From IMG/VR virus record IMGVR_UViG_3300042556_002767, positions 1 to 29,625 of that record: 29,625 bases of DNA. The stretch is one strand, 5' to 3'. The stretch is from a virus. The notes beneath the pieces are model-generated. The model was given only the letters and a program-made list of their open reading frames with translations. It was not told where the DNA came from and searched no databases. The translations under genes were made by a program, and so were the position numbers. Below, in pieces: positions 1-26,503 of this stretch (positions within the stretch are counted from its first letter, which is position 1; each line of letters opens with the position of its first letter).

Positions 1-115
1 TTGATGGTTCTAATGGGTTAATTTGACTCAGGTAATAGAAACGAACTGCTTCCATTGCGTCATTAAATTCGTGTGTGGTGATTTGCTCACCTTTGATAAG
101 ATGTACTTTGTGCAT
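1..115 (-). CDS. Unknown leftward gene, 3' end beyond window
   Basis: An open frame of 38 codons runs from an ATG (complement of 113-115) to the left edge without a stop; it begins MHKVHLIKGEQ. The leader carries the AAACACTTAAA word shared with other left-arm genes, and a consensus-like promoter lies about 40-70 bases upstream, so this may head its own transcript. The visible part is hydrophilic and has no motif I recognise. Function unknown; the gene continues outside the window. Confidence 0.6.
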   Translation of the reverse strand, partial: MHKVHLIKGEQITTHEFNDAMEAVRFYYLSQINPLEPS

Positions 116-154
116 AGTGTAAATTTTAAGTGTTTGTTGATTAAATTATCACCA

Positions 155-187
155 CAAATGTAATATCTTTTTTATACAAAAGTCAAA
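155..187 (-). promoter_or_regulatory. Bacteroidota-type promoter reading leftward
   Basis: On the minus strand, TTTG (complement of 184-187) is followed after 21 bases by TACATTTG (complement of 155-162), matching the TTTG / TAnnTTTG consensus with a spacer slightly longer than the usual 19-20. It points at the gene starting at 115 and lies between that gene and the 3' end of 228-449. Seen directly; activity is inferred. Confidence 0.55.
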
Positions 188-227
188 TAATTTTGATAAA
201 TAGATATTAACTTTTTTGTGTTAATTG

Positions 228-449
228 TCATATAGGTTTAAACATGTTTTGCATACTATCAACTGTCTCTATCCTCATAATTTCTACAAAAACATGAAAG
301 GATTCTTTTTTGAACAGGTTAATTGTATTATCACTTGCCCCTAATTTCAGTAGAAGCAATAGAGCTATTTCGTAGTCATAGGATGAAATTTTGATGTTGT
401 TATCATATAGCAATTGTGCTATTTCTTTGATTGTTGTGTTGTTGCTCAT
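228..449 (-). CDS. Small unknown left-arm protein
   Basis: This is a 73-residue hydrophilic, mainly helical-looking protein beginning MSNNTTIKEIAQLLYDNN. I chose the ATG at 449 over an in-frame TTG at 485 because the longer form would overlap the end of gene 457-723 and uses a rarer start codon. It follows that gene by 7 bases and is probably co-transcribed with it. I recognise no family. It may be an early host-interaction or regulatory protein, but nothing in the sequence decides this. Confidence 0.6.
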   Translation of the reverse strand: MSNNTTIKEIAQLLYDNNIKISSYDYEIALLLLLKLGASDNTINLFKKESFHVFVEIMRIETVDSMQNMFKPI

Positions 450-456
450 GATTATT

Positions 457-723
457 TTAGTTGTTTTGGTGGTTATTTGATACAATACATATTTCTGCTT
501 CCATAGAGTCTATTTTGGTATTAAAACTTTCTAACCCGAAATCGTATTTCAAATTATGTGATTCGCATAAAGACAAAATTTCGCTCATCTTTTCATTTTC
601 CCATAATTGAAAATACATATCATTTAGTATTTCTTTTGGTTTATTTTTATCATCACATCTGATAAAAAATCCAAATTTTCTACCAATTAACTTTTCTGAT
701 TTTTCGATAAATTCTTTTTCCAT
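457..723 (-). CDS. Small unknown left-arm protein
   Basis: An 88-residue protein starting MEKEFIEKSEKLIGRKFGFF, charged and probably globular, with no signal peptide or membrane segment. No family is recognised. The start region is notable: reading the other way, a plus-strand -33 box (724-727) abuts the start codon. The region upstream of this gene (about 724-838) also holds a predicted plus-strand small RNA that would be antisense to this gene's own leader. Expression of this gene could therefore be directly affected by that antisense transcript. Confidence 0.65.
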   Translation of the reverse strand: MEKEFIEKSEKLIGRKFGFFIRCDDKNKPKEILNDMYFQLWENEKMSEILSLCESHNLKYDFGLESFNTKIDSMEAEICIVSNNHQNN

Positions 724-755
724 TTTGATTTTTTGTTTGAATGTATATATATTTG
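724..755 (+). promoter_or_regulatory. Consensus promoter against the left operon
   Basis: TTTG at 724-727, a 20-base spacer and TATATTTG at 748-755 give a full match to the Bacteroidota promoter consensus on the plus strand, opposite to all genes nearby. Downstream there is no plus-strand gene, only a strong plus-oriented terminator at 788-825. The -33 box abuts the start codon of the minus-strand gene 457-723. Confidence 0.6.
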
Positions 756-760
756 ATTTT

Positions 761-825
761 TAAATTTTGTGTGTAGTTTAAGTGTTTAAGTAACGCCCCT
801 GAAACGTCGGGGGCGTTACTTTTTT
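761..825 (+). ncRNA. Predicted ~65-nt antisense small RNA
   Basis: The RNA is inferred from a consensus promoter (724-755) and a perfect intrinsic terminator (788-825) with no plus-strand gene between; the 5' end is approximate. Its single-stranded part contains TTTAAGTGTTTA (777-788). The complement of that word occurs in the leaders of the leftward genes starting at 115 (11 of 11 bases), 2785 (12 of 12) and 4212 (12 of 12), and by position in the leader of gene 457-723. The other common leader form, AAACACATAAAC, pairs with 776-787 at 11 of 12 positions. A trans-acting antisense regulator of the left operon is a reasonable hypothesis. Not a family I know. Confidence 0.45.
788..825 (+). terminator. 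Intrinsic terminator, plus-oriented
   Basis: AAGTAACGCCCC (788-799) pairs perfectly with GGGGCGTTACTT (810-821) around a 10-base loop, and six T residues occupy 820-825 on the plus strand. On the minus strand only two T residues follow the stem, so as a terminator it works best in the direction opposite to the genes. It could also act weakly as the 3' end of the minus-strand gene 839-1402. Confidence 0.75.
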
Positions 826-838
826 AAACACACTAACA

Positions 839-1402
839 TTAAACACCATAATTTGTAACTACAAATGGGTTAAAATCTGGTTTCTTGCATGATTCGATAG
901 CAGTACAGTCTAAATTGATTTCATTCCAGCTATTCGCCCCTGTATTCATTATTTTCTTGCAAGTTTCAATAGCACTATCATATAAAGGTTTTACCTGTTC
1001 AATTTCAGCCCCTGTATAAATCACCATAGCTTTTATAGAAGCAAGCAAGTGAAGCAGTAAAGTTGAAGCAATATCTTTTATCTGTTCATCTGTAAAATTG
1101 GTAAACTGCTCATGTAGAAATTTGCAAGTTTGGTTAATATCATCATCAGTATAAAATCGTTGGGTTATTACCTCTACATGACCTATTTCGTTTTTTGCAA
1201 GTAACATGATTTGGTAATAAGTTGATTTTTTAGGCTTATTCAATTGCCCATTTTTTGGGTTTATTGTTTGGCTAACATGTCTAAATCCATGACCTTTTTT
1301 AAATTCAATACTATCATGTTTAGTAGTTTTTAGCCTAAAACCATAGGGGTAATTTTCGCTGGTTATTACCTGTGAAGTGTGGTGAAATACTAAATTTTTC
1401 AT
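839..1402 (-). CDS. Unknown conserved-looking left-arm protein
   Basis: A 187-residue protein. The N-terminal half has a basic segment around residues 33-62 containing FRHVSQTINPKNGQLNKPKK, typical of small phage or plasmid proteins of this phylum, but I cannot name a function. The C-terminal half looks helical and contains three cysteines (CKK, CTA, CKK) in the last third. It has no membrane segment. The ATG at 1402 is preceded by the shared AAACACAT leader. It follows the clamp-like gene 1443-2429 in the operon, 40 bases downstream. Confidence 0.7.
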   Translation of the reverse strand: MKNLVFHHTSQVITSENYPYGFRLKTTKHDSIEFKKGHGFRHVSQTINPKNGQLNKPKKSTYYQIMLLAKNEIGHVEVITQRFYTDDDINQTCKFLHEQFTNFTDEQIKDIASTLLLHLLASIKAMVIYTGAEIEQVKPLYDSAIETCKKIMNTGANSWNEINLDCTAIESCKKPDFNPFVVTNYGV

Positions 1403-1442
1403 GTGTTTTTTTTTATGTGTTTATATATGATTTTTGATAGGA

Positions 1443-2429
1443 TTAATAAAGAGGAAAAGTATGTACGCCCCCTACAAAAATATGTGCGTCGCTTCCATCA
1501 TTATTGTTTCTTGAAACAGGCATAACGAGCGCGAAATGTCCATTTTGAGTTTCAATACATAGCGCACGATTATTTTCGTCGCTTACATAGAAGGTCATAT
1601 TTCCGCTATCGTTTGCTGCCAAGCAATAGATTGTATCAGCTAATAATTTTATGTTTATTGCCGTTGTTTTATTGTTTTTTTTGTCAAATCCGAATACCAA
1701 ATTTTTTTGATTTTTGCTAAAATTTGCCGCATGATTCATTGCCTTTTCAATTTTAAAAAGCATGTTTTCTGCTGAGCATTCATACCTATTTTGATATTCT
1801 TGTTTATACTGTGGTATTATGGCAGTATAGTTATAATATTTTTCTTCTATCAATTGACCTGTATTGAAATTAATCAACTTTTTTTCAAGGTCTAAATTTA
1901 GATTATTGATAAAAGTATCAGTTTCATTTTTTGCGTCATATAGCCCCTTAAATTTCATCAATGTGCTCATATGAATATCTGATATATCAGAAAGCGTTTC
2001 AAACGTATTTTGCCCCGTTAAAATCACTAATTTATGCGCGTCCGTAGCTACTAAATCACCATTGGTTAAAAATACGCCTTGTGATATTGGGCGCAATTCG
2101 TCATGGCCTACTATATTTTTTAACGATAAAAAACCTTTGTTTTTTATTGGATTTTTTGCTTTGTATGTTTTCGATAGGTTAATAGATAGTGGCAAAAAAA
2201 TATCTTTACTAATGTCTAAGTACAGTTTATTTTTTAACTTGATATTTTCGCCCGATAGCTCATGTAAAAAGTCATGCTGAAAAATCTCAATGTCATGTTC
2301 ATCAAGTTTTTTTCCTGTTAACTTTTCAAGAGCTACAAATGGACAGGCATATTTTTTATCAAGCCCGTTAAATTGTGTAATCAGGTCGTTAAAATTTGCG
2401 CCATAATTGGCAAAAAATTGTGTGTTCAT
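1443..2429 (-). CDS. Putative DNA sliding clamp-like protein
   Basis: A 328-residue protein. Around residues 115-137 is a stretch ending NGDLVATDAHKLVIL, resembling the 'VATDGHRLA' segment of bacterial beta clamps. Near the C-terminus, NGHFALVMPV resembles the closing strand of DnaN ('YVVMPM'). Length is close to that of bacterial clamps (about 370), with roughly 20 additional residues after the closing strand. If correct it would ring DNA and tether a polymerase; no polymerase is visible in this window. The clamp motifs are seen; the family assignment is inference from short matches and needs a profile or structure search. It is the largest gene of the left arm and uses the shared leader. 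Alternative: an unrelated conserved protein of Bacteroidota mobile elements. Confidence 0.5.
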   Translation of the reverse strand: MNTQFFANYGANFNDLITQFNGLDKKYACPFVALEKLTGKKLDEHDIEIFQHDFLHELSGENIKLKNKLYLDISKDIFLPLSINLSKTYKAKNPIKNKGFLSLKNIVGHDELRPISQGVFLTNGDLVATDAHKLVILTGQNTFETLSDISDIHMSTLMKFKGLYDAKNETDTFINNLNLDLEKKLINFNTGQLIEEKYYNYTAIIPQYKQEYQNRYECSAENMLFKIEKAMNHAANFSKNQKNLVFGFDKKNNKTTAINIKLLADTIYCLAANDSGNMTFYVSDENNRALCIETQNGHFALVMPVSRNNNDGSDAHIFVGGVHTFPLY

Positions 2430-2483
2430 GTGTTTAAATTTTGAAGTGTTTATGTGTGTTTATTTTTGTTTTGATAGCCCATA

Positions 2484-2510
2484 ATAGGAGCAAAATTTTG
2501 CTGCTCCTAT
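2484..2510 (-). repeat. Hairpin after stop codon
   Basis: ATAGGAGCA (2484-2492) and TGCTCCTAT (2502-2510) form a perfect 9-bp stem with a 9-base loop. It sits between the stop of gene 2531-2785 and the leader of gene 1443-2429. No T run follows on either strand, so it is more likely an mRNA processing or stabilising structure than an intrinsic terminator. Confidence 0.55.
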
Positions 2511-2530
2511 CATGCGCCTATTTTCGTTTT

Positions 2531-2785
2531 TTAGATATTGAAACCGTAGTTAATAGCTGTAAATTCATCAATATCGCCATGAGGGGTTAAAATACCTCTG
2601 TTAATCAAGTTATGAGCTACTTTTTTATAGTGTGGCTCTAAATAGTCTACATGATTATTTCGCAGCAAGTCAGCAAATAAATACAGGCTACTTTCATTCG
2701 ATAGTTCGCCCAGTTCATAAAGCGCTAAATTTCTTGCAATGTTCAAACCTGAATTGTGTTGTGTGTGTGTTGTGTGTGTGTACAT
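2531..2785 (-). CDS. Small unknown left-arm protein
   Basis: An 84-residue protein beginning MYTHTTHTQHNSGLNIARNL. I chose the ATG at 2785 rather than the in-frame TTG at 2845. The AAATAAACACTTAAA leader shared by the left-arm genes lies just upstream of this ATG and would otherwise be inside the coding region. The N-terminus is a Thr/His-rich stretch encoded by a TG-dinucleotide-rich tract. No family recognised. Confidence 0.65.
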   Translation of the reverse strand: MYTHTTHTQHNSGLNIARNLALYELGELSNESSLYLFADLLRNNHVDYLEPHYKKVAHNLINRGILTPHGDIDEFTAINYGFNI

Positions 2786-2879
2786 AGTAAATTGATTTTT
2801 TAAGTGTTTATTTGTGTATGTTTTGAATATAGCCCGATAGAGCAATTTATTTTTGTTTTATGTGTCTATGTGCCTAAAA

Positions 2880-3152
2880 TTATTTTGATGTGTTTATTGA
2901 GGCTAAAAGGTCATTAATCAGGGGCAAAATATGCCGTGAATCTACATGAATATTACAGGTTACATTTGAACCGTAATATGAGACATGATACGGACGCTCT
3001 TTGTAGTGGTGTGGCTCAATTAATAGCTCACTATTACCTATTTTGAGACATCCTCCAATATAGGCTATTTTACCATTAATTCGAAATCTGATAACTTCAA
3101 ACCCTAAATTTTGCAAAGTATTCCAGCATGCTAATTTTGTTATATTTTTCAT
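2880..3152 (-). CDS. Small unknown left-arm protein
   Basis: A 90-residue protein with a mixed alpha/beta appearance, containing HHYKERPYHVSYYGSN near the middle and several histidines (HH, HV, HV, RH). The histidine cluster might bind metal, but no catalytic signature is complete. The ATG at 3152 is directly preceded by the shared AAACACATAAACAC leader. The neighbours are equally small genes in the same operon. Function unknown. Confidence 0.65.
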   Translation of the reverse strand: MKNITKLACWNTLQNLGFEVIRFRINGKIAYIGGCLKIGNSELLIEPHHYKERPYHVSYYGSNVTCNIHVDSRHILPLINDLLASINTSK

Positions 3153-3173
3153 GTGTTTATGTGTTTTGTGTGT

Positions 3174-3362
3174 TTACATACTTTCTTCTAAATCTCTTAA
3201 TTCACGCTCTAAAAACATTATGCGCTCGTTTATCATGCTACATTGAAAACGTACTGCATTCATATTGCCCCCGTATTTTAAAGAACCTGTATAGTACATT
3301 TCAGCGTGTTCACTTTTCAATTTTTCAATTTTTCTGTTTATTGATTGTATTTTTCGTTTCAT
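3174..3362 (-). CDS. Small coiled-coil protein
   Basis: A 62-residue, highly charged protein. Residues 1-20 (MKRKIQSINRKIEKLKSEHA) and 44-62 show heptad-like spacing of I, L and M, suggesting a short antiparallel or dimeric coiled coil around a central YYTGSLKYGG turn. No DNA-binding signature is evident. The ATG follows the AAACACATAAACAC leader exactly. It ends 21 bases before the next gene in the operon. Function unknown; it could be an adaptor or inhibitor peptide. Confidence 0.6.
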   Translation of the reverse strand: MKRKIQSINRKIEKLKSEHAEMYYTGSLKYGGNMNAVRFQCSMINERIMFLERELRDLEESM

Positions 3363-3380
3363 GTGTTTATGTGTTTTTTT

Positions 3381-3578
3381 TTAAATTTCTGTTATAACAT
3401 CGAATGAGTAGAAATAATCGCATTTTTTGACCTTGGAAAAATAGTCTTCATATACAAATAAAAGCCCTGATTTATTTTTATATTTTAGTGCGCCTGTTAC
3501 TTGCAACCCGCTAAAATTTAGGAGGTATTTTTTGCCCTTTTTTAGCTCTTCAAAAGTGTATTTTTTTTGTCTGTTCAT
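3381..3578 (-). CDS. Small unknown beta-rich protein
   Basis: A 65-residue basic protein beginning MNRQKKYTFEELKKGKKYLLN, followed by short alternating hydrophobic stretches (LQVTGALKY, GLLFVYEDYF) that suggest a small SH3-like barrel. This fold guess rests on pattern only. It uses the shared leader and sits tightly between neighbours of similar size. Confidence 0.6.
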   Translation of the reverse strand: MNRQKKYTFEELKKGKKYLLNFSGLQVTGALKYKNKSGLLFVYEDYFSKVKKCDYFYSFDVITEI

Positions 3579-3598
3579 GTTATTGTGTGTTTATGTGT

Positions 3599-3862
3599 TT
3601 ACTTTGTTTCAATCATTAAAAAGACATGGGCAACATCACAAGCCAAATTATTTACACTGTTATATGTTGAAAAATAAGGCTCTGTTTTAAATTCATAAAT
3701 AAAGTAGGTATTTTTATACTCGCAATAAACCCTCGAAATAAAATCCTCTATTTCGTTTTCTTCTTGTTGATTTAGTCCGCTAAAATCGCCGTTAATTAGT
3801 GCGCTTGCATAATATGACGGGATGATAAACCTCAACTGCTCAAATTTTTTATTTGTGTTCAT
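3599..3862 (-). CDS. Small unknown left-arm protein
   Basis: An 87-residue acidic protein, MNTNKKFEQLRFIIPSYYAS at its start, with an aromatic-rich centre (YCEYKNTYFIYEF). No membrane segment or known motif. The leader is a variant of the operon motif (CACACATAAAAAAACACACACC before ATG). Function unknown. Confidence 0.6.
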   Translation of the reverse strand: MNTNKKFEQLRFIIPSYYASALINGDFSGLNQQEENEIEDFISRVYCEYKNTYFIYEFKTEPYFSTYNSVNNLACDVAHVFLMIETK

Positions 3863-3899
3863 GGTGTGTGTTTTTTTATGTGTGTGTAGGGTTAAAATC

Positions 3900-3917
3900 G
3901 GGGCGTATTTCAGCCCC
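3900..3917. repeat. GC-rich hairpin between left-arm genes
   Basis: GGGGC (3900-3904) pairs with GCCCC (3913-3917) around an 8-base loop containing TTTCA. It lies just after the stop of gene 3925-4212. T-rich sequence follows on the plus strand (TTATTTTTT) and a shorter one (GATTTT) on the minus strand, so it could terminate in either direction. The stem is only 5 bp. Confidence 0.4.
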
Positions 3918-3924
3918 TTATTTT

Positions 3925-4212
3925 TTATATGCTTGCTTGTATGCTTTTGATTTTTTCGGCAGTATCTCGCAAGTTGTAAGAGCTGAGAACTATTCCTCCT
4001 CCGTATATTTGCCCCCTGTATTTTTTCCCTTTTACCTTTCGCGACCTTTCAACCGCAAGTTCATAAAGTGAACGTTGGGTATGTATTCCAAAGCTTTTGC
4101 GCTCATCATCAGAAAGGAATGAAAAAAAATGCACTATGTAACGAGGATTGCCATAATAGTTGTTATTGATTGGGGTGAAATCAATGCCGTTGACATTTTG
4201 TGTACTGCTCAT
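3925..4212 (-). CDS. Small unknown conserved-looking protein
   Basis: A 95-residue protein with NNNYYGNPRYIVHFFSFLS in the first half and GKKYRGQIYGGGIVLSSYNL in the second. The pairing of an 'NPRYIVHF' segment with a 'KKYRG..YGGG.V..SYNL' segment is reminiscent of small proteins on Bacteroidota phages and mobile elements, but I know no function for them. The ATG at 4212 is preceded by AAACACTTAAAAAA, one of the exact copies of the word complementary to the predicted small RNA at 761-825. Confidence 0.65.
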   Translation of the reverse strand: MSSTQNVNGIDFTPINNNYYGNPRYIVHFFSFLSDDERKSFGIHTQRSLYELAVERSRKVKGKKYRGQIYGGGIVLSSYNLRDTAEKIKSIQASI

Positions 4213-4239
4213 TTTTTTAAGTGTTTAATGTTTAAAATA

Positions 4240-4422
4240 TTATTTGTTGTTTGTTACTTTATACCCAGATTCACGGGCTACATAATTTATATGCTTTTGT
4301 GTAGTTTGCGACCAATAACCCAACTGCTCAACTGTTCTGTTTTCATGGTTAATCGTGGCTACATGAGTATTATAACTATAAACGTTACTTTCCTCTACTC
4401 TTAAATTTTGTTTGTATTTCAT
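4240..4422 (-). CDS. Small unknown protein, WS-TT-KH motif
   Basis: A 60-residue protein. The segment YNTHVATINHENRTVEQLGY is followed by WSQTTQKHINYVARE, a pattern I associate with a small family of uncharacterised phage and mobile-element proteins ('V-A-I...WS-TT-KHI-Y'). No function is known to me. It uses the shared leader (ACATACACACATG). Confidence 0.6.
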   Translation of the reverse strand: MKYKQNLRVEESNVYSYNTHVATINHENRTVEQLGYWSQTTQKHINYVARESGYKVTNNK

Positions 4423-4448
4423 GTGTGTATGTTTTTTGTGTTTATTGT

Positions 4449-4538
4449 TTAGATGGTGAAATATGAGGCGATTGATACAAGCACGATATAATAAGCTATC
4501 AATAAAAAAATCTGTTGTTGTTTAGTTGGAGTGTTCAT
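4449..4538 (-). CDS. 29-residue single-pass membrane peptide
   Basis: A very small gene. ATG at 4538 follows AAAACATAAACAC, an exact copy of the operon leader, which is the main reason to believe it. The peptide begins MNTPTKQQQ and then has an uninterrupted hydrophobic helix of about 20 residues (residues 10-29) ending at a TAA at 4449-4451. It is probably an inner-membrane peptide with a short polar N-terminus. It fills an otherwise unexplained 175-base gap between 4422 and 4598. Possible roles include superinfection exclusion or membrane modification; none is shown. Confidence 0.55.
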   Translation of the reverse strand: MNTPTKQQQIFLLIAYYIVLVSIASYFTI

Positions 4539-4564
4539 GTGTTTATGTTTTGAGGGTTTAAAGT

Positions 4565-4588
4565 AGGGGCGCATATTTCAACGCCCCT
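4565..4588. repeat. GC-rich hairpin between left-arm genes
   Basis: AGGGGCG (4565-4571) pairs perfectly with CGCCCCT (4582-4588) around a 10-base loop that includes TTTCA, like the hairpin at 3900-3917. It follows the stop of gene 4598-4825. No T run follows on either strand, which argues against a simple intrinsic terminator. Confidence 0.5.
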
Positions 4589-4597
4589 GTTGTTTGT

Positions 4598-4825
4598 TTA
4601 CTTGTTTATTTTATAGCCTTGAAATGCTAATGTAGATTTTTCGAAGTCCGTAGTCTTAATATTCAAGCTCCATGCTTTTATATGCAGCTTATCTGTTGTG
4701 ATTGCTTCTAAATAGCCTTGATTGTGATAATGTAGAGCTTTTATTGTTTGTTTAATGCCGTCGTAAAAGATAAAATCTCCTATTTCCGCTTTTTGTGTGT
4801 TTAGTGTGTACATTGTATTTTTCAT
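4598..4825 (-). CDS. Small unknown left-arm protein
   Basis: A 75-residue protein starting MKNTMYTLNTQKAEIGDFIF. An internal ATG at 4813 is an alternative start. Alternating short hydrophobic strands (GDFIFYDG, IKALHYH, YLEAITT) suggest a small beta fold. It lies between the lipoprotein gene and the membrane peptide gene. Function unknown. Confidence 0.6.
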   Translation of the reverse strand: MKNTMYTLNTQKAEIGDFIFYDGIKQTIKALHYHNQGYLEAITTDKLHIKAWSLNIKTTDFEKSTLAFQGYKINK

Positions 4826-4853
4826 TTTGTTGAGTGTTATTGTTTCTTGTTTC

Positions 4854-5054
4854 TTAGTTGTTTGCCCAGTTACAACCTTTATTGTTAGTGTTTAAGTAAT
4901 GGCTTCCCTTGTGTTTGTGGCTCAAATGCTTTTGGTACCCATTGCCTACATTGCGAGTAGAACCGCATGATGTAAGAATGATTGAAAGAACCGCAATAAG
5001 TGTCAGAGTTACAATTACATTACGATTTGAAAGTGTGTTAAATACTGTTTTCAT
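4854..5054 (-). CDS. Small phage-encoded lipoprotein
   Basis: A 66-residue protein. Residues 1-11 are basic, residues 13-27 hydrophobic, and LTSC at 27-30 is a lipobox, so signal peptidase II should cleave before Cys30 and leave a lipidated mature protein of about 37 residues starting CGSTRN. The mature part is rich in H, N, G and K. It is the first gene downstream of the leftward promoter at 5104-5135. By analogy with the lipoproteins of phages T5 and phi80 that block receptors, a role in superinfection exclusion is plausible, but this is inference from position and architecture only. Confidence 0.65.
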   Translation of the reverse strand: MKTVFNTLSNRNVIVTLTLIAVLSIILTSCGSTRNVGNGYQKHLSHKHKGSHYLNTNNKGCNWANN

Positions 5055-5103
5055 TTTGTGTGTTTTTTAAATTGTTTGTGTTTTGTGTTCCTTAATTGTT
5101 TGA

Positions 5104-5135
5104 CAAATATAAATCAACTTTTTTGATTATGCAAG
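5104..5135 (-). promoter_or_regulatory. Leftward promoter of the left arm
   Basis: On the minus strand CTTG (complement of 5132-5135) is followed after 20 bases by TATATTTG (complement of 5104-5111), a good Bacteroidota promoter with three of four bases in the -33 box. It lies 50 bases upstream of the lipoprotein gene start and would drive the left operon. A second, weaker -7 match, TACATTTG, is the complement of 5203-5210. Confidence 0.55.
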
Positions 5136-5396
5136 AAAAAAGTAAAATATTTTTGTTTTTTTTTTACTTTATTTCGTGCGTCATCTCGATTGATTGACAG
5201 AACAAATGTAATACATTCTCTCATTCAATCCTAAAAAAAAGTTACTTTTATGTCGTTATTTTATACACATTCGTCGAATATATGTAACTTATTGAGAATC
5301 AATTAGTTAGTGTTTAATGCTTTGAAACGGTGAAAAGTGAGCATAAGCGGGTGAAATTCACATGGAACAAAGCAGAAAGAAACAAACGAAAGAAAG

Positions 5397-25474: not shown

Positions 25475-26396
25475 TAATTTAATTGGCGTAAAATGCCTTT
25501 CTTCAAATCCAAAGAGCGGTTTGTGGATAAACGACCTTGAGGGTATCAATATTCGAATGGCGGCAGACATTGCTGATAGCGGATACATGAGCGGCCTTCA
25601 ATTGCTTGAGCAAAAGATAAATTTTGCCTCTCAACTTGTGATGCAAGAACTGAGTGGATTTTTACTTCCATATTTTAGAGTAAATAGCGCGATTGATGAG
25701 CTTTTGGTTGGTGATTTTAACGCCAATTATCTTGCTTCATCATCAACAGACAGAGGAATCAAGGCCACGGTTAAGAATACGCGAATGATGCGAATTTTTG
25801 TTGGAGAGGTTAAAATCCGCATTCAACAGGCTAATACAAATCATTCTTTTCAGATTGTAGATGGATTTAACTCTACCTCGTTTTCTTTTACGACAGATTC
25901 CAATGGTGAGGCAAGTGTTTTTGCTAACTACATCTCATCCAATCGCGAGATTTACATTTTGATGGATAACACATCTATTAATCCCGCTGATACAGATGTG
26001 AAGTCTGGATGTTCTTGCTCTTCTAAGTCTTCTCAGTTTATGCTTGTAAATGGATGGAATGGTTCGGGAGTTGGAAACAATTCTTACGGCATTAAAGCTC
26101 AATTAACCGCTGAATGTAAAATTGATGAGATGATATGTATCATATCTCAGCATTTACGTTTCCCGATTTTATATAAAGCTGGGCTTGAGATTGTAAAGGA
26201 AGCAAAAGCAACAGACAGACTAAATTCTGTTACATTGCTTGACAATGATAAGATAAACTTTTTGTATGAAGAGTTTACAATGCAGTACAATAATCACATG
26301 AAAATCATTGTAAATCAACTACCTGAGTTATTTAAACGAATTGATGACATTTGTGTAATTTGTAATCAATCAAGATATATTTACGGAAACCCATAA
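25455..26396 (+). CDS. Conserved phage protein of unknown role
   Basis: A 313-residue protein. The N-terminus reads SCLDNLIGVKC and then SGLWINDLEGINIRMAADIA, which I recall as a recurrent start of uncharacterised proteins in Bacteroidota phages. The middle is beta-rich, and a CSCSSKSS cluster occurs near residue 190. I chose the ATG at 25455, inside the end of the amidase gene, because the conserved N-terminus begins right after it. Probably a virion or connector component; no motif decides. The 3' end abuts the minus-strand terminator at 26395-26423. Confidence 0.65.
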   Translation: MLPSCLDNLIGVKCLSSNPKSGLWINDLEGINIRMAADIADSGYMSGLQLLEQKINFASQLVMQELSGFLLPYFRVNSAIDELLVGDFNANYLASSSTDRGIKATVKNTRMMRIFVGEVKIRIQQANTNHSFQIVDGFNSTSFSFTTDSNGEASVFANYISSNREIYILMDNTSINPADTDVKSGCSCSSKSSQFMLVNGWNGSGVGNNSYGIKAQLTAECKIDEMICIISQHLRFPILYKAGLEIVKEAKATDRLNSVTLLDNDKINFLYEEFTMQYNNHMKIIVNQLPELFKRIDDICVICNQSRYIYGNP

Positions 26397-26423
26397 AAAC
26401 AAAGCCCCACTTATTAGTGAGGC
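26395..26423 (-). terminator. Intrinsic terminator, minus-oriented
   Basis: On the minus strand GCCTCACT - AATA - AGTGGGGC forms an 8-bp hairpin with one G-U wobble and is followed by TTTGTTTTT. On the plus strand the same position is a C-A mismatch and no T run follows, so the structure is clearly built for leftward transcripts. Confidence 0.75.
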
Positions 26424-26469
26424 AATGTTGGCATGAGTTTACCGCCGTTTTTCGCTTATTGTATCGGCA
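26395..26469 (-). ncRNA. Predicted ~70-nt small RNA, minus strand
   Basis: A perfect consensus promoter (26473-26503) and a matched terminator (26395-26423) enclose about 70 bases on the strand opposite to every gene nearby. Only a six-codon frame is present, so a non-coding RNA is likely. The word CAUUGCC occurs twice (complements of 26466-26472 and 26421-26427). UUGCCG near the 5' end can pair with CGGUAA further on (one wobble), and UUGCC of the second copy can pair with the same GGUAA, so two alternative folds exist. The 5' end is approximate. No known RNA family recognised. Confidence 0.55.
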
Positions 26470-26472
26470 ATG

Positions 26473-26503
26473 CAAATATAAATTAATAAAATAAAAAGTC
26501 AAA
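26473..26503 (-). promoter_or_regulatory. Perfect consensus promoter, minus strand
   Basis: TTTG (complement of 26500-26503), exactly 19 bases, TATATTTG (complement of 26473-26480). It reads leftward, against the late genes, towards the terminator at 26395-26423. Its -33 box overlaps the start codon of the plus-strand gene 26503-26604, the same geometry as the antisense promoter at 724-755. Confidence 0.75.

What the first reader, a model, noticed from the sequence alone, without database searches (positions are those of the whole stretch)
724..825. Predicted antisense small RNA that could pair with the shared leader of the left operon
A consensus plus-strand promoter (TTTG-20-TATATTTG) is followed about 35 bases later by a 12-bp terminator with six T residues, and there is no plus-strand gene. 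The enclosed RNA carries UUUAAGUGUUUA. Exact complements (11-12 bases) lie in the leaders of leftward genes starting at 115, 2785 and 4212, just before their start codons. The common AAACACATAAAC leader pairs at 11 of 12 positions. One RNA could thus switch translation of many early genes together.
Basis: partly seen in the sequence, partly recalled or inferred. Interest (0 to 1): 0.8.

Follow-up and report, generated by a model that had tools for sequence, protein, structure and literature searches.

The report
Conserved antisense RNA against phage leaders
A group of uncultured phages, probably infecting Bacteroidota, carries a conserved RNA of about 70 letters made backwards across its own early operon; it can pair with the stretch just before the start codon of several early genes, so it probably acts as a brake on them, but no experiment has yet shown that it is made.

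Summary
In detail: at 724-825(+) there is a Bacteroidota-type promoter (TTTG-20-TATATTTG), a predicted 67-nt RNA with UUUAAGUGUUUA, a strong hairpin and six T. Alone this is not beyond chance, but relatives settle it. Eight distinct sequences from related IMG/VR phages keep the unit: -33 and -7 boxes 95% and 100% identical against 67% for the spacer, five stem pairs changed on both sides, T5-T6 on the antisense side only, while neighbouring genes are exchanged. A covariance model built without the window finds it at E=6e-8. In each early operon it is the only strict antisense promoter. An antisense RNA gene is therefore very likely (about 0.9). Its tail pairs with early leaders better than shuffled tails do in five of seven phages tested; in the other two only two leaders qualify, the operon's first gene and a conserved 183-aa gene. 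The antisense of other leaders would pair as well, so trans control of many genes is plausible, not shown; cis pairing is nearly certain if the RNA is made. Anatomy is like P22 sar or lambda OOP RNA; no Rfam family matches.

The parts
724..755 (+). Antisense-RNA promoter: -33 TTTG/TTGAT (724-729), -7 box TATATTTG (748-755)
   Evidence: boxes 95% and 100% identical in 8 genomes, spacer 67%; the only strict antisense promoter in the early operon of each genome
760..825 (+). Predicted antisense RNA, about 66-67 nt, no conserved ORF
   Evidence: start inferred from box position -12 to -5 (PMC9723704); CM R1 hit 725-824 at E=6.2e-8, model built without the window; no conserved ORF in 8 homologues
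777..788 (+). Anti-leader word UUUAAGUGUUUA
   Evidence: word or close variant in all 8 homologues, often in tandem
788..825 (+). Terminator hairpin (stem 788-802/807-821) and T6 (820-825)
   Evidence: five stem pairs with two-sided changes, T5-T6 in 8 of 8 on this strand only
457..723 (-). 88-aa leftward ORF; the antisense RNA covers its long leader in cis
   Evidence: no homologue in the relatives searched
125..135 (-). Target word (AAACACTTAAA) in the leader of the leftward gene starting at 115, the conserved 183-aa 'MHKVH' gene
   Evidence: duplex -21.2 kcal/mol, best of all window leaders; this gene's leader is matched by the RNA in all 8 phages
2799..2810 (-). Target word in the leader of the gene starting at 2785
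   Evidence: duplex -16.5
4216..4227 (-). Target word in the leader of the gene starting at 4212
   Evidence: 13-base match TTAAACACTTAAA
5055..5095 (-). Leader of the first gene of the leftward operon (start 5054), A/C-rich, predicted target
   Evidence: duplex -19.6, 11-base match ACACACAAAAT
5104..5134 (-). Main leftward promoter of the operon (-7 box TATATTTG 5104-5111)
   Evidence: same promoter class on the sense strand in L029, G003, L020, L021, L204
155..187 (-). Second leftward promoter TTTGAC...TACATTTG ahead of the gene at 115
   Evidence: identical in L003

Best explanation
The segment is a small non-coding RNA gene of the phage. Host RNA polymerase starts at about 760 from a standard Bacteroidota promoter and stops at the hairpin-T6 near 825, giving an RNA of about 67 nt with a largely single-stranded G/U-rich 5' tail and a 3' terminator hairpin (inferred from conserved anatomy, not from a transcript). 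The RNA runs against the leftward early operon, so it is perfectly complementary to the operon mRNA at one gene junction and should form a duplex there, opening the mRNA to double-strand cleavage or hindering the downstream gene (inference). In trans, the tail's UUUAAGUGUUU word can cover A/C-rich leaders just upstream of start codons, the region that drives initiation in Bacteroidota, which lack Shine-Dalgarno sites. The most consistent targets are the 183-aa 'MHKVH' gene and the operon's first gene; other leaders come and go between phages. Proposed net effect: a brake on early-gene translation. Shown: conservation, covariation, complementarity. Inferred: transcription, pairing, repression.
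For: Eight distinct homologues at the same kind of operon position. A CM from six relatives finds L019 (1.3e-8) and window (6.2e-8), nothing comparable in the 26 other loci searched. Boxes 95-100% vs spacer 67% identity. Exactly one strict antisense promoter per operon, at most one sense one. Five stem pairs with two-sided changes, T5-T6 in 8 of 8 on this strand only. The same promoter pattern precedes a tRNA-Leu in an unnamed bacterial MAG and fits the published TAnnTTTG box. Flanking genes differ between clades while the unit stays. Tail-leader pairing beats shuffled tails in five phages (0-3 of 200 shuffles reach it) and beats coding sequence clearly in window, L003 and L019. Leaders of L013 and L015, relatives without the RNA, pair poorly (-8 to -10 vs -13 to -20 in the five best phages). 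In L020/L021/L204 both the RNA's second word and the MHKVH leader have lost the same two bases.
Against: No transcript data exist. Antisense versions of other leaders pair as well as the real tail. Own-versus-swapped leader test only p 0.037, without correction for kinship. L020 and L021 show no overall leader preference. L027 keeps the word in 4 of 10 leaders without the RNA gene. Two stem mismatches (C-A in the antisense RNA of L003 and of L029/G003) would be G-U pairs in the sense mRNA, as if the sense strand also uses the hairpin. A second promoter-hairpin unit (26395-26502, minus) lacks the word, so such units need not act through it.
Confidence: 0.55

Rival explanations
1. A real antisense RNA that works only in cis: it duplexes with, or its transcription collides with, the operon mRNA at this junction, separating expression of upstream and downstream early genes (OOP-like). 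The complementarity to other leaders is a by-product of lying over one copy of the shared leader motif.
For: Perfect cis complementarity over the whole RNA (by construction). Antisense of other leaders pairs equally well. In L020/L021 few other leaders match. A second such unit without the word exists.
Against: In the window and L003 the word lies about 55 nt or more from the next start codon, where a leader function would not hold it, yet it is kept or duplicated in 8 of 8. The gene in cis differs between phages, while the match to the MHKVH leader recurs.
Confidence: 0.27
2. A real small RNA whose main target is a host RNA or protein; leader complementarity reflects only G/U- versus A/C-rich composition.
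For: Many phage RNAs act on host targets (reviewed in PMC12197685). The loop sequence AAACG is conserved in all 8, hinting at a further contact.
Against: Dinucleotide-shuffled tails of the same composition pair clearly worse in five phages.
Confidence: 0.1
3. The hairpin is an element of the leftward mRNA (stabiliser or processing site) and the plus-strand promoter is fortuitous.
For: Other gene junctions of the operon also carry GC hairpins. C-A mismatches in L003 and L029/G003 are G-U pairs on the sense strand.
Against: Promoter boxes conserved 8 of 8 while the spacer drifts. T-tract only on the antisense side, 8 of 8. No other strict antisense promoter in any of the operons.
Confidence: 0.05

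Closest known systems
P22 sar RNA
   Same: Short phage RNA with its own promoter, antisense to an mRNA region that controls start of translation (PMC12197685, PMC13397905).
   Different: sar targets one gene, ant. Here the neighbouring gene varies and the tail also matches leaders elsewhere in the operon. No sequence relation detected; different presumed host phylum.
Lambda OOP RNA
   Same: Short phage RNA opposing an early operon, with its own promoter; acts as antisense with RNase III (PMC12197685).
   Different: OOP is antisense to the cII gene; this one fills an intergenic leader and carries an anti-leader word.
DonS-type antisense RNAs of Bacteroides
   Same: 78-128 nt cis-antisense RNAs in Bacteroidota, negative regulators (PMC7366714).
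   Different: Chromosomal, act on susC homologues of polysaccharide loci; Rfam hits to Bacteroides RNAs here are far below threshold (BTnc049, rteR).
P1/P7 c4 RNA
   Same: Phage antisense RNA that regulates by base pairing (PMC12197685); short pairing words are from my own knowledge.
   Different: c4 is processed from its target's own transcript (own knowledge); this one has its own opposing promoter.

Membership tests
Phage antisense RNA with own promoter and terminator (sar/OOP kind) | Own promoter opposing the target gene | tested here: met
   Strict promoter, conserved 8 of 8
Phage antisense RNA with own promoter and terminator (sar/OOP kind) | Intrinsic terminator at the RNA's 3' end | tested here: met
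   Hairpin with covariation and T5-T6 on this strand only
Phage antisense RNA with own promoter and terminator (sar/OOP kind) | Transcribed, and represses its target | not testable with these tools
   No RNA data for any of these uncultured phages
Phage antisense RNA with own promoter and terminator (sar/OOP kind) | Homology to any RNA family held in Rfam | tested here: not met
   No match at gathering score in window or in L003, L019, L029, L021
Trans-acting small RNA with several targets | Complementarity to target leaders above chance | tested here: met
   Met for window, L003, L019, L029, G003; not for L020, L021
Trans-acting small RNA with several targets | Complementarity beyond what any antisense leader would give, or coevolution with targets | tested here: inconclusive
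   Other anti-leaders equal it; swap test p 0.037
Bacteroides RNA families BTnc049 / rteR | Score above the Rfam gathering threshold | tested here: not met
   BTnc049 25.9 vs 81.9 bits, rteR 15.7 vs 72

The most novel reading that the evidence does not exclude
A phage encodes one trans-acting RNA that recognises a repeated leader word placed ahead of many of its own early genes, so a single RNA tunes translation of a whole early operon in hosts that lack Shine-Dalgarno sites; the word is kept in register between RNA and core target leaders as phages diverge.
Probability: 0.38. Interest if true: 0.78.

Novelty: new variant of a known kind. Interest (0 to 1): 0.62.

Why it matters
Known phage antisense RNAs mostly silence one gene. 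Here an undescribed, conserved RNA family in phages that probably infect Bacteroidota is complementary to a leader motif shared by several early genes, which would let one RNA act like a repressor of an operon at the level of translation. Bacteroidota start translation without Shine-Dalgarno pairing and rely on A-rich leaders (PMC6847099), so a G/U-rich antisense tail is a natural way to block them. The covariance model and the promoter pattern give a direct way to find more.

Tried and rejected
Isolated phages: no megablast hit for the window's first 20 kb and no tblastn hit for the clamp-like protein; the best-covering terminase hits are only about 24-27% identical. Rfam: nothing above threshold. 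Small ORF inside the RNA: none conserved. Covariation between RNA tail and MHKVH leader as proof of trans pairing: only p 0.037, kept as suggestive. AlphaFold2 of the MHKVH protein: pLDDT 56, not used. Pfam/PHROGs for MHKVH, the 88-aa and the 73-aa ORFs: no convincing family. Alignments with the window included: MAFFT misaligned the stems of window and L019, so stems were aligned by register and the CM was built without these two.

Full report
What was checked. The finding is at 724-825 on the plus strand of a 29.6-kb IMG/VR virus record that carries terminase, tape-measure and other late genes rightwards and a run of small early genes leftwards. The sequence elements are as described: TTTG 724-727, 20 nt, TATATTTG 748-755; the word TTTAAGTGTTTA at 777-788; a hairpin 788-821 with MFE -26.7 kcal/mol (z -5.4); six T at 820-825. 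Exact copies of the word lie in the leaders of the leftward genes at 2785 and 4212, an 11-base copy in that of the gene at 115; shuffles expect 0.04 copies in the window against 3 seen. Generic promoter and terminator scans gave no more hits than shuffles, so the single sequence does not prove an RNA gene.

Relatives. Searches with the neighbouring 187-aa and clamp-like proteins found one close relative, L003. A terminase search found 28 loci, and searches inside their records located the early operons. A scan for promoter plus hairpin plus T-tract over all loci, a promoter-pattern scan of the viral collection and a search with the 183-aa protein alignment gave eight distinct homologous units: window, L003, L019, L029, G003 (L165), L020, L021 (identical in L022) and L204. 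All lie antisense to a gene junction in the leftward early operon. The flanking genes differ: on the upstream side a 187-aa gene (window, L003), a 92-aa gene (L019), another gene (L029, G003), a 90-aa gene (L020, L021, L204); on the downstream side an 88-aa, 75-aa, 78-aa or 91-92-aa gene. The unit thus outlives exchange of its neighbours.

It is an RNA gene. Across the eight, the -33 box is 95% and the -7 box 100% identical, the spacer between them 67%. In each operon there is exactly one strict promoter (TTGA[CT]-N16-21-TATATTTG) on the antisense strand, this one, and at most one on the sense strand; relatives L013, L015 and L027, which lack the unit, have no antisense one. The box matches the published Flavobacterium sigma-A consensus TAnnTTTG at -12 to -5 (PMC9723704), and the same degenerate pattern precedes a tRNA-Leu in an unnamed bacterial MAG. 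Stem pairs 5 to 9, counted from the loop, change on both sides between phages, and five or six T follow the hairpin on this strand in all eight, on the other strand in none. A covariance model built from six relatives without window and L019 finds L019 at E=1.3e-8 and the window at 725-824 at E=6.2e-8; the next hits in 315 kb are the window's own opposite strand (0.002) and the second unit described below (0.013). No ORF is conserved in the RNA. I put the existence of this RNA gene at about 0.9.

What it may pair with. For the window, the tail pairs with 13 early leaders at a mean of -15.6 kcal/mol, against -9.4 for coding stretches of the same operon (p 2.9e-6) and -11.0 for shuffled tails (1 of 200 as good). 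L003, L019, L029 and G003 also beat shuffled tails (0-3 of 200); L020 and L021 do not as a whole, but in each two leaders stand out, those of the operon's first gene and of the 183-aa gene. Tails pair poorly with leaders of L013 and L015 (-8 to -10). In L020, L021 and L204 the RNA's second word and the 183-aa gene's leader have both lost the same two bases (AAACACTTAAA to AAACTTAAA); this is one event, and a swap test over the eight gives p 0.037.

Limits. The reverse complement of other leaders of the window pairs with leaders as well as the real tail does. The signal therefore comes from a shared A/C-rich leader family; that the RNA was selected to exploit it in trans is not shown. Points in favour are that the word lies about 55 nt or more from the next start codon in the window and L003, and is duplicated inside the RNA of L029, G003 and, in variant form, L020, L021 and L204. 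Points against are L027, which keeps the word in 4 of 10 leaders without the RNA, and two stem mismatches that would be G-U pairs in the sense mRNA.

Mechanism. Most likely a brake on early genes: pairing in cis with the operon mRNA if both are made, and probable pairing in trans over leaders just upstream of start codons, where adenines promote initiation in Bacteroidota (PMC6847099). The host phylum is inferred from promoter type and leaders, not shown. Timing is unknown; since the main operon promoter and this promoter are of one class, they may be active together, which would make the RNA a governor rather than a late shut-off (inference).

Comparison. In anatomy it works like P22 sar and lambda OOP RNAs (PMC12197685, PMC13397905), but shows no Rfam homology. 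The closest Bacteroidota parallel is the DonS kind of cis-antisense RNA (PMC7366714). My paper searches found no report of this RNA or of an anti-leader RNA in Bacteroidota phages, within an open-access library only.

A second unit. The window has one other strict promoter with a hairpin, on the minus strand at 26502-26395, in the late region; four relatives, the L027 phage (L209) among them, keep promoter, hairpin and T-rich tail at the same place, one with TACATTTG in place of TATATTTG. It lacks the anti-leader word. This suggests that such antisense units are a habit of these phages and that the word is specific to the early one.

Noticed in passing
window 26395-26502 (minus); L206 about 3305-3410, L207 about 5160-5272, L208 about 4051-4160, L209 about 4680-4790: A second short antisense RNA candidate in the late region: TTGAC-N17-TATATTTG, about 70 nt, hairpin GCCTCACTAATAAGTGGGGC, T-rich tail, ending at the stop of the 328-aa gene; kept in four relatives, including one that lacks the early RNA.
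   Followed up: partly
L189:7187-7335, L186 about 3010-3156, L192:5288-5436: Three other phage contigs carry the same promoter class followed by a strongly folded RNA of about 115 nt (z about -4) with a possible loop-loop contact GUAGCGG/CCGCUAC that covaries to GUAGCAG/CUGCUAC; no Rfam match.
   Followed up: partly
window 1-5100 (minus) and L003 1-5200: Small early ORFs are gained or lost close to the shared leader repeats (for example the 88-aa ORF 457-723), as if the leaders serve as recombination joints.
   Followed up: no
window 2480-2516, 3900-3918, 4570-4592: Other early gene junctions carry GC-rich hairpins, two of them with the sense-strand loop TGAAATA; their role is unclear.
   Followed up: no
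window 155-187 (minus): A second leftward promoter (TTTGAC...TACATTTG) ahead of the 183-aa gene is identical in L003 and related in L029 and G003.
   Followed up: partly
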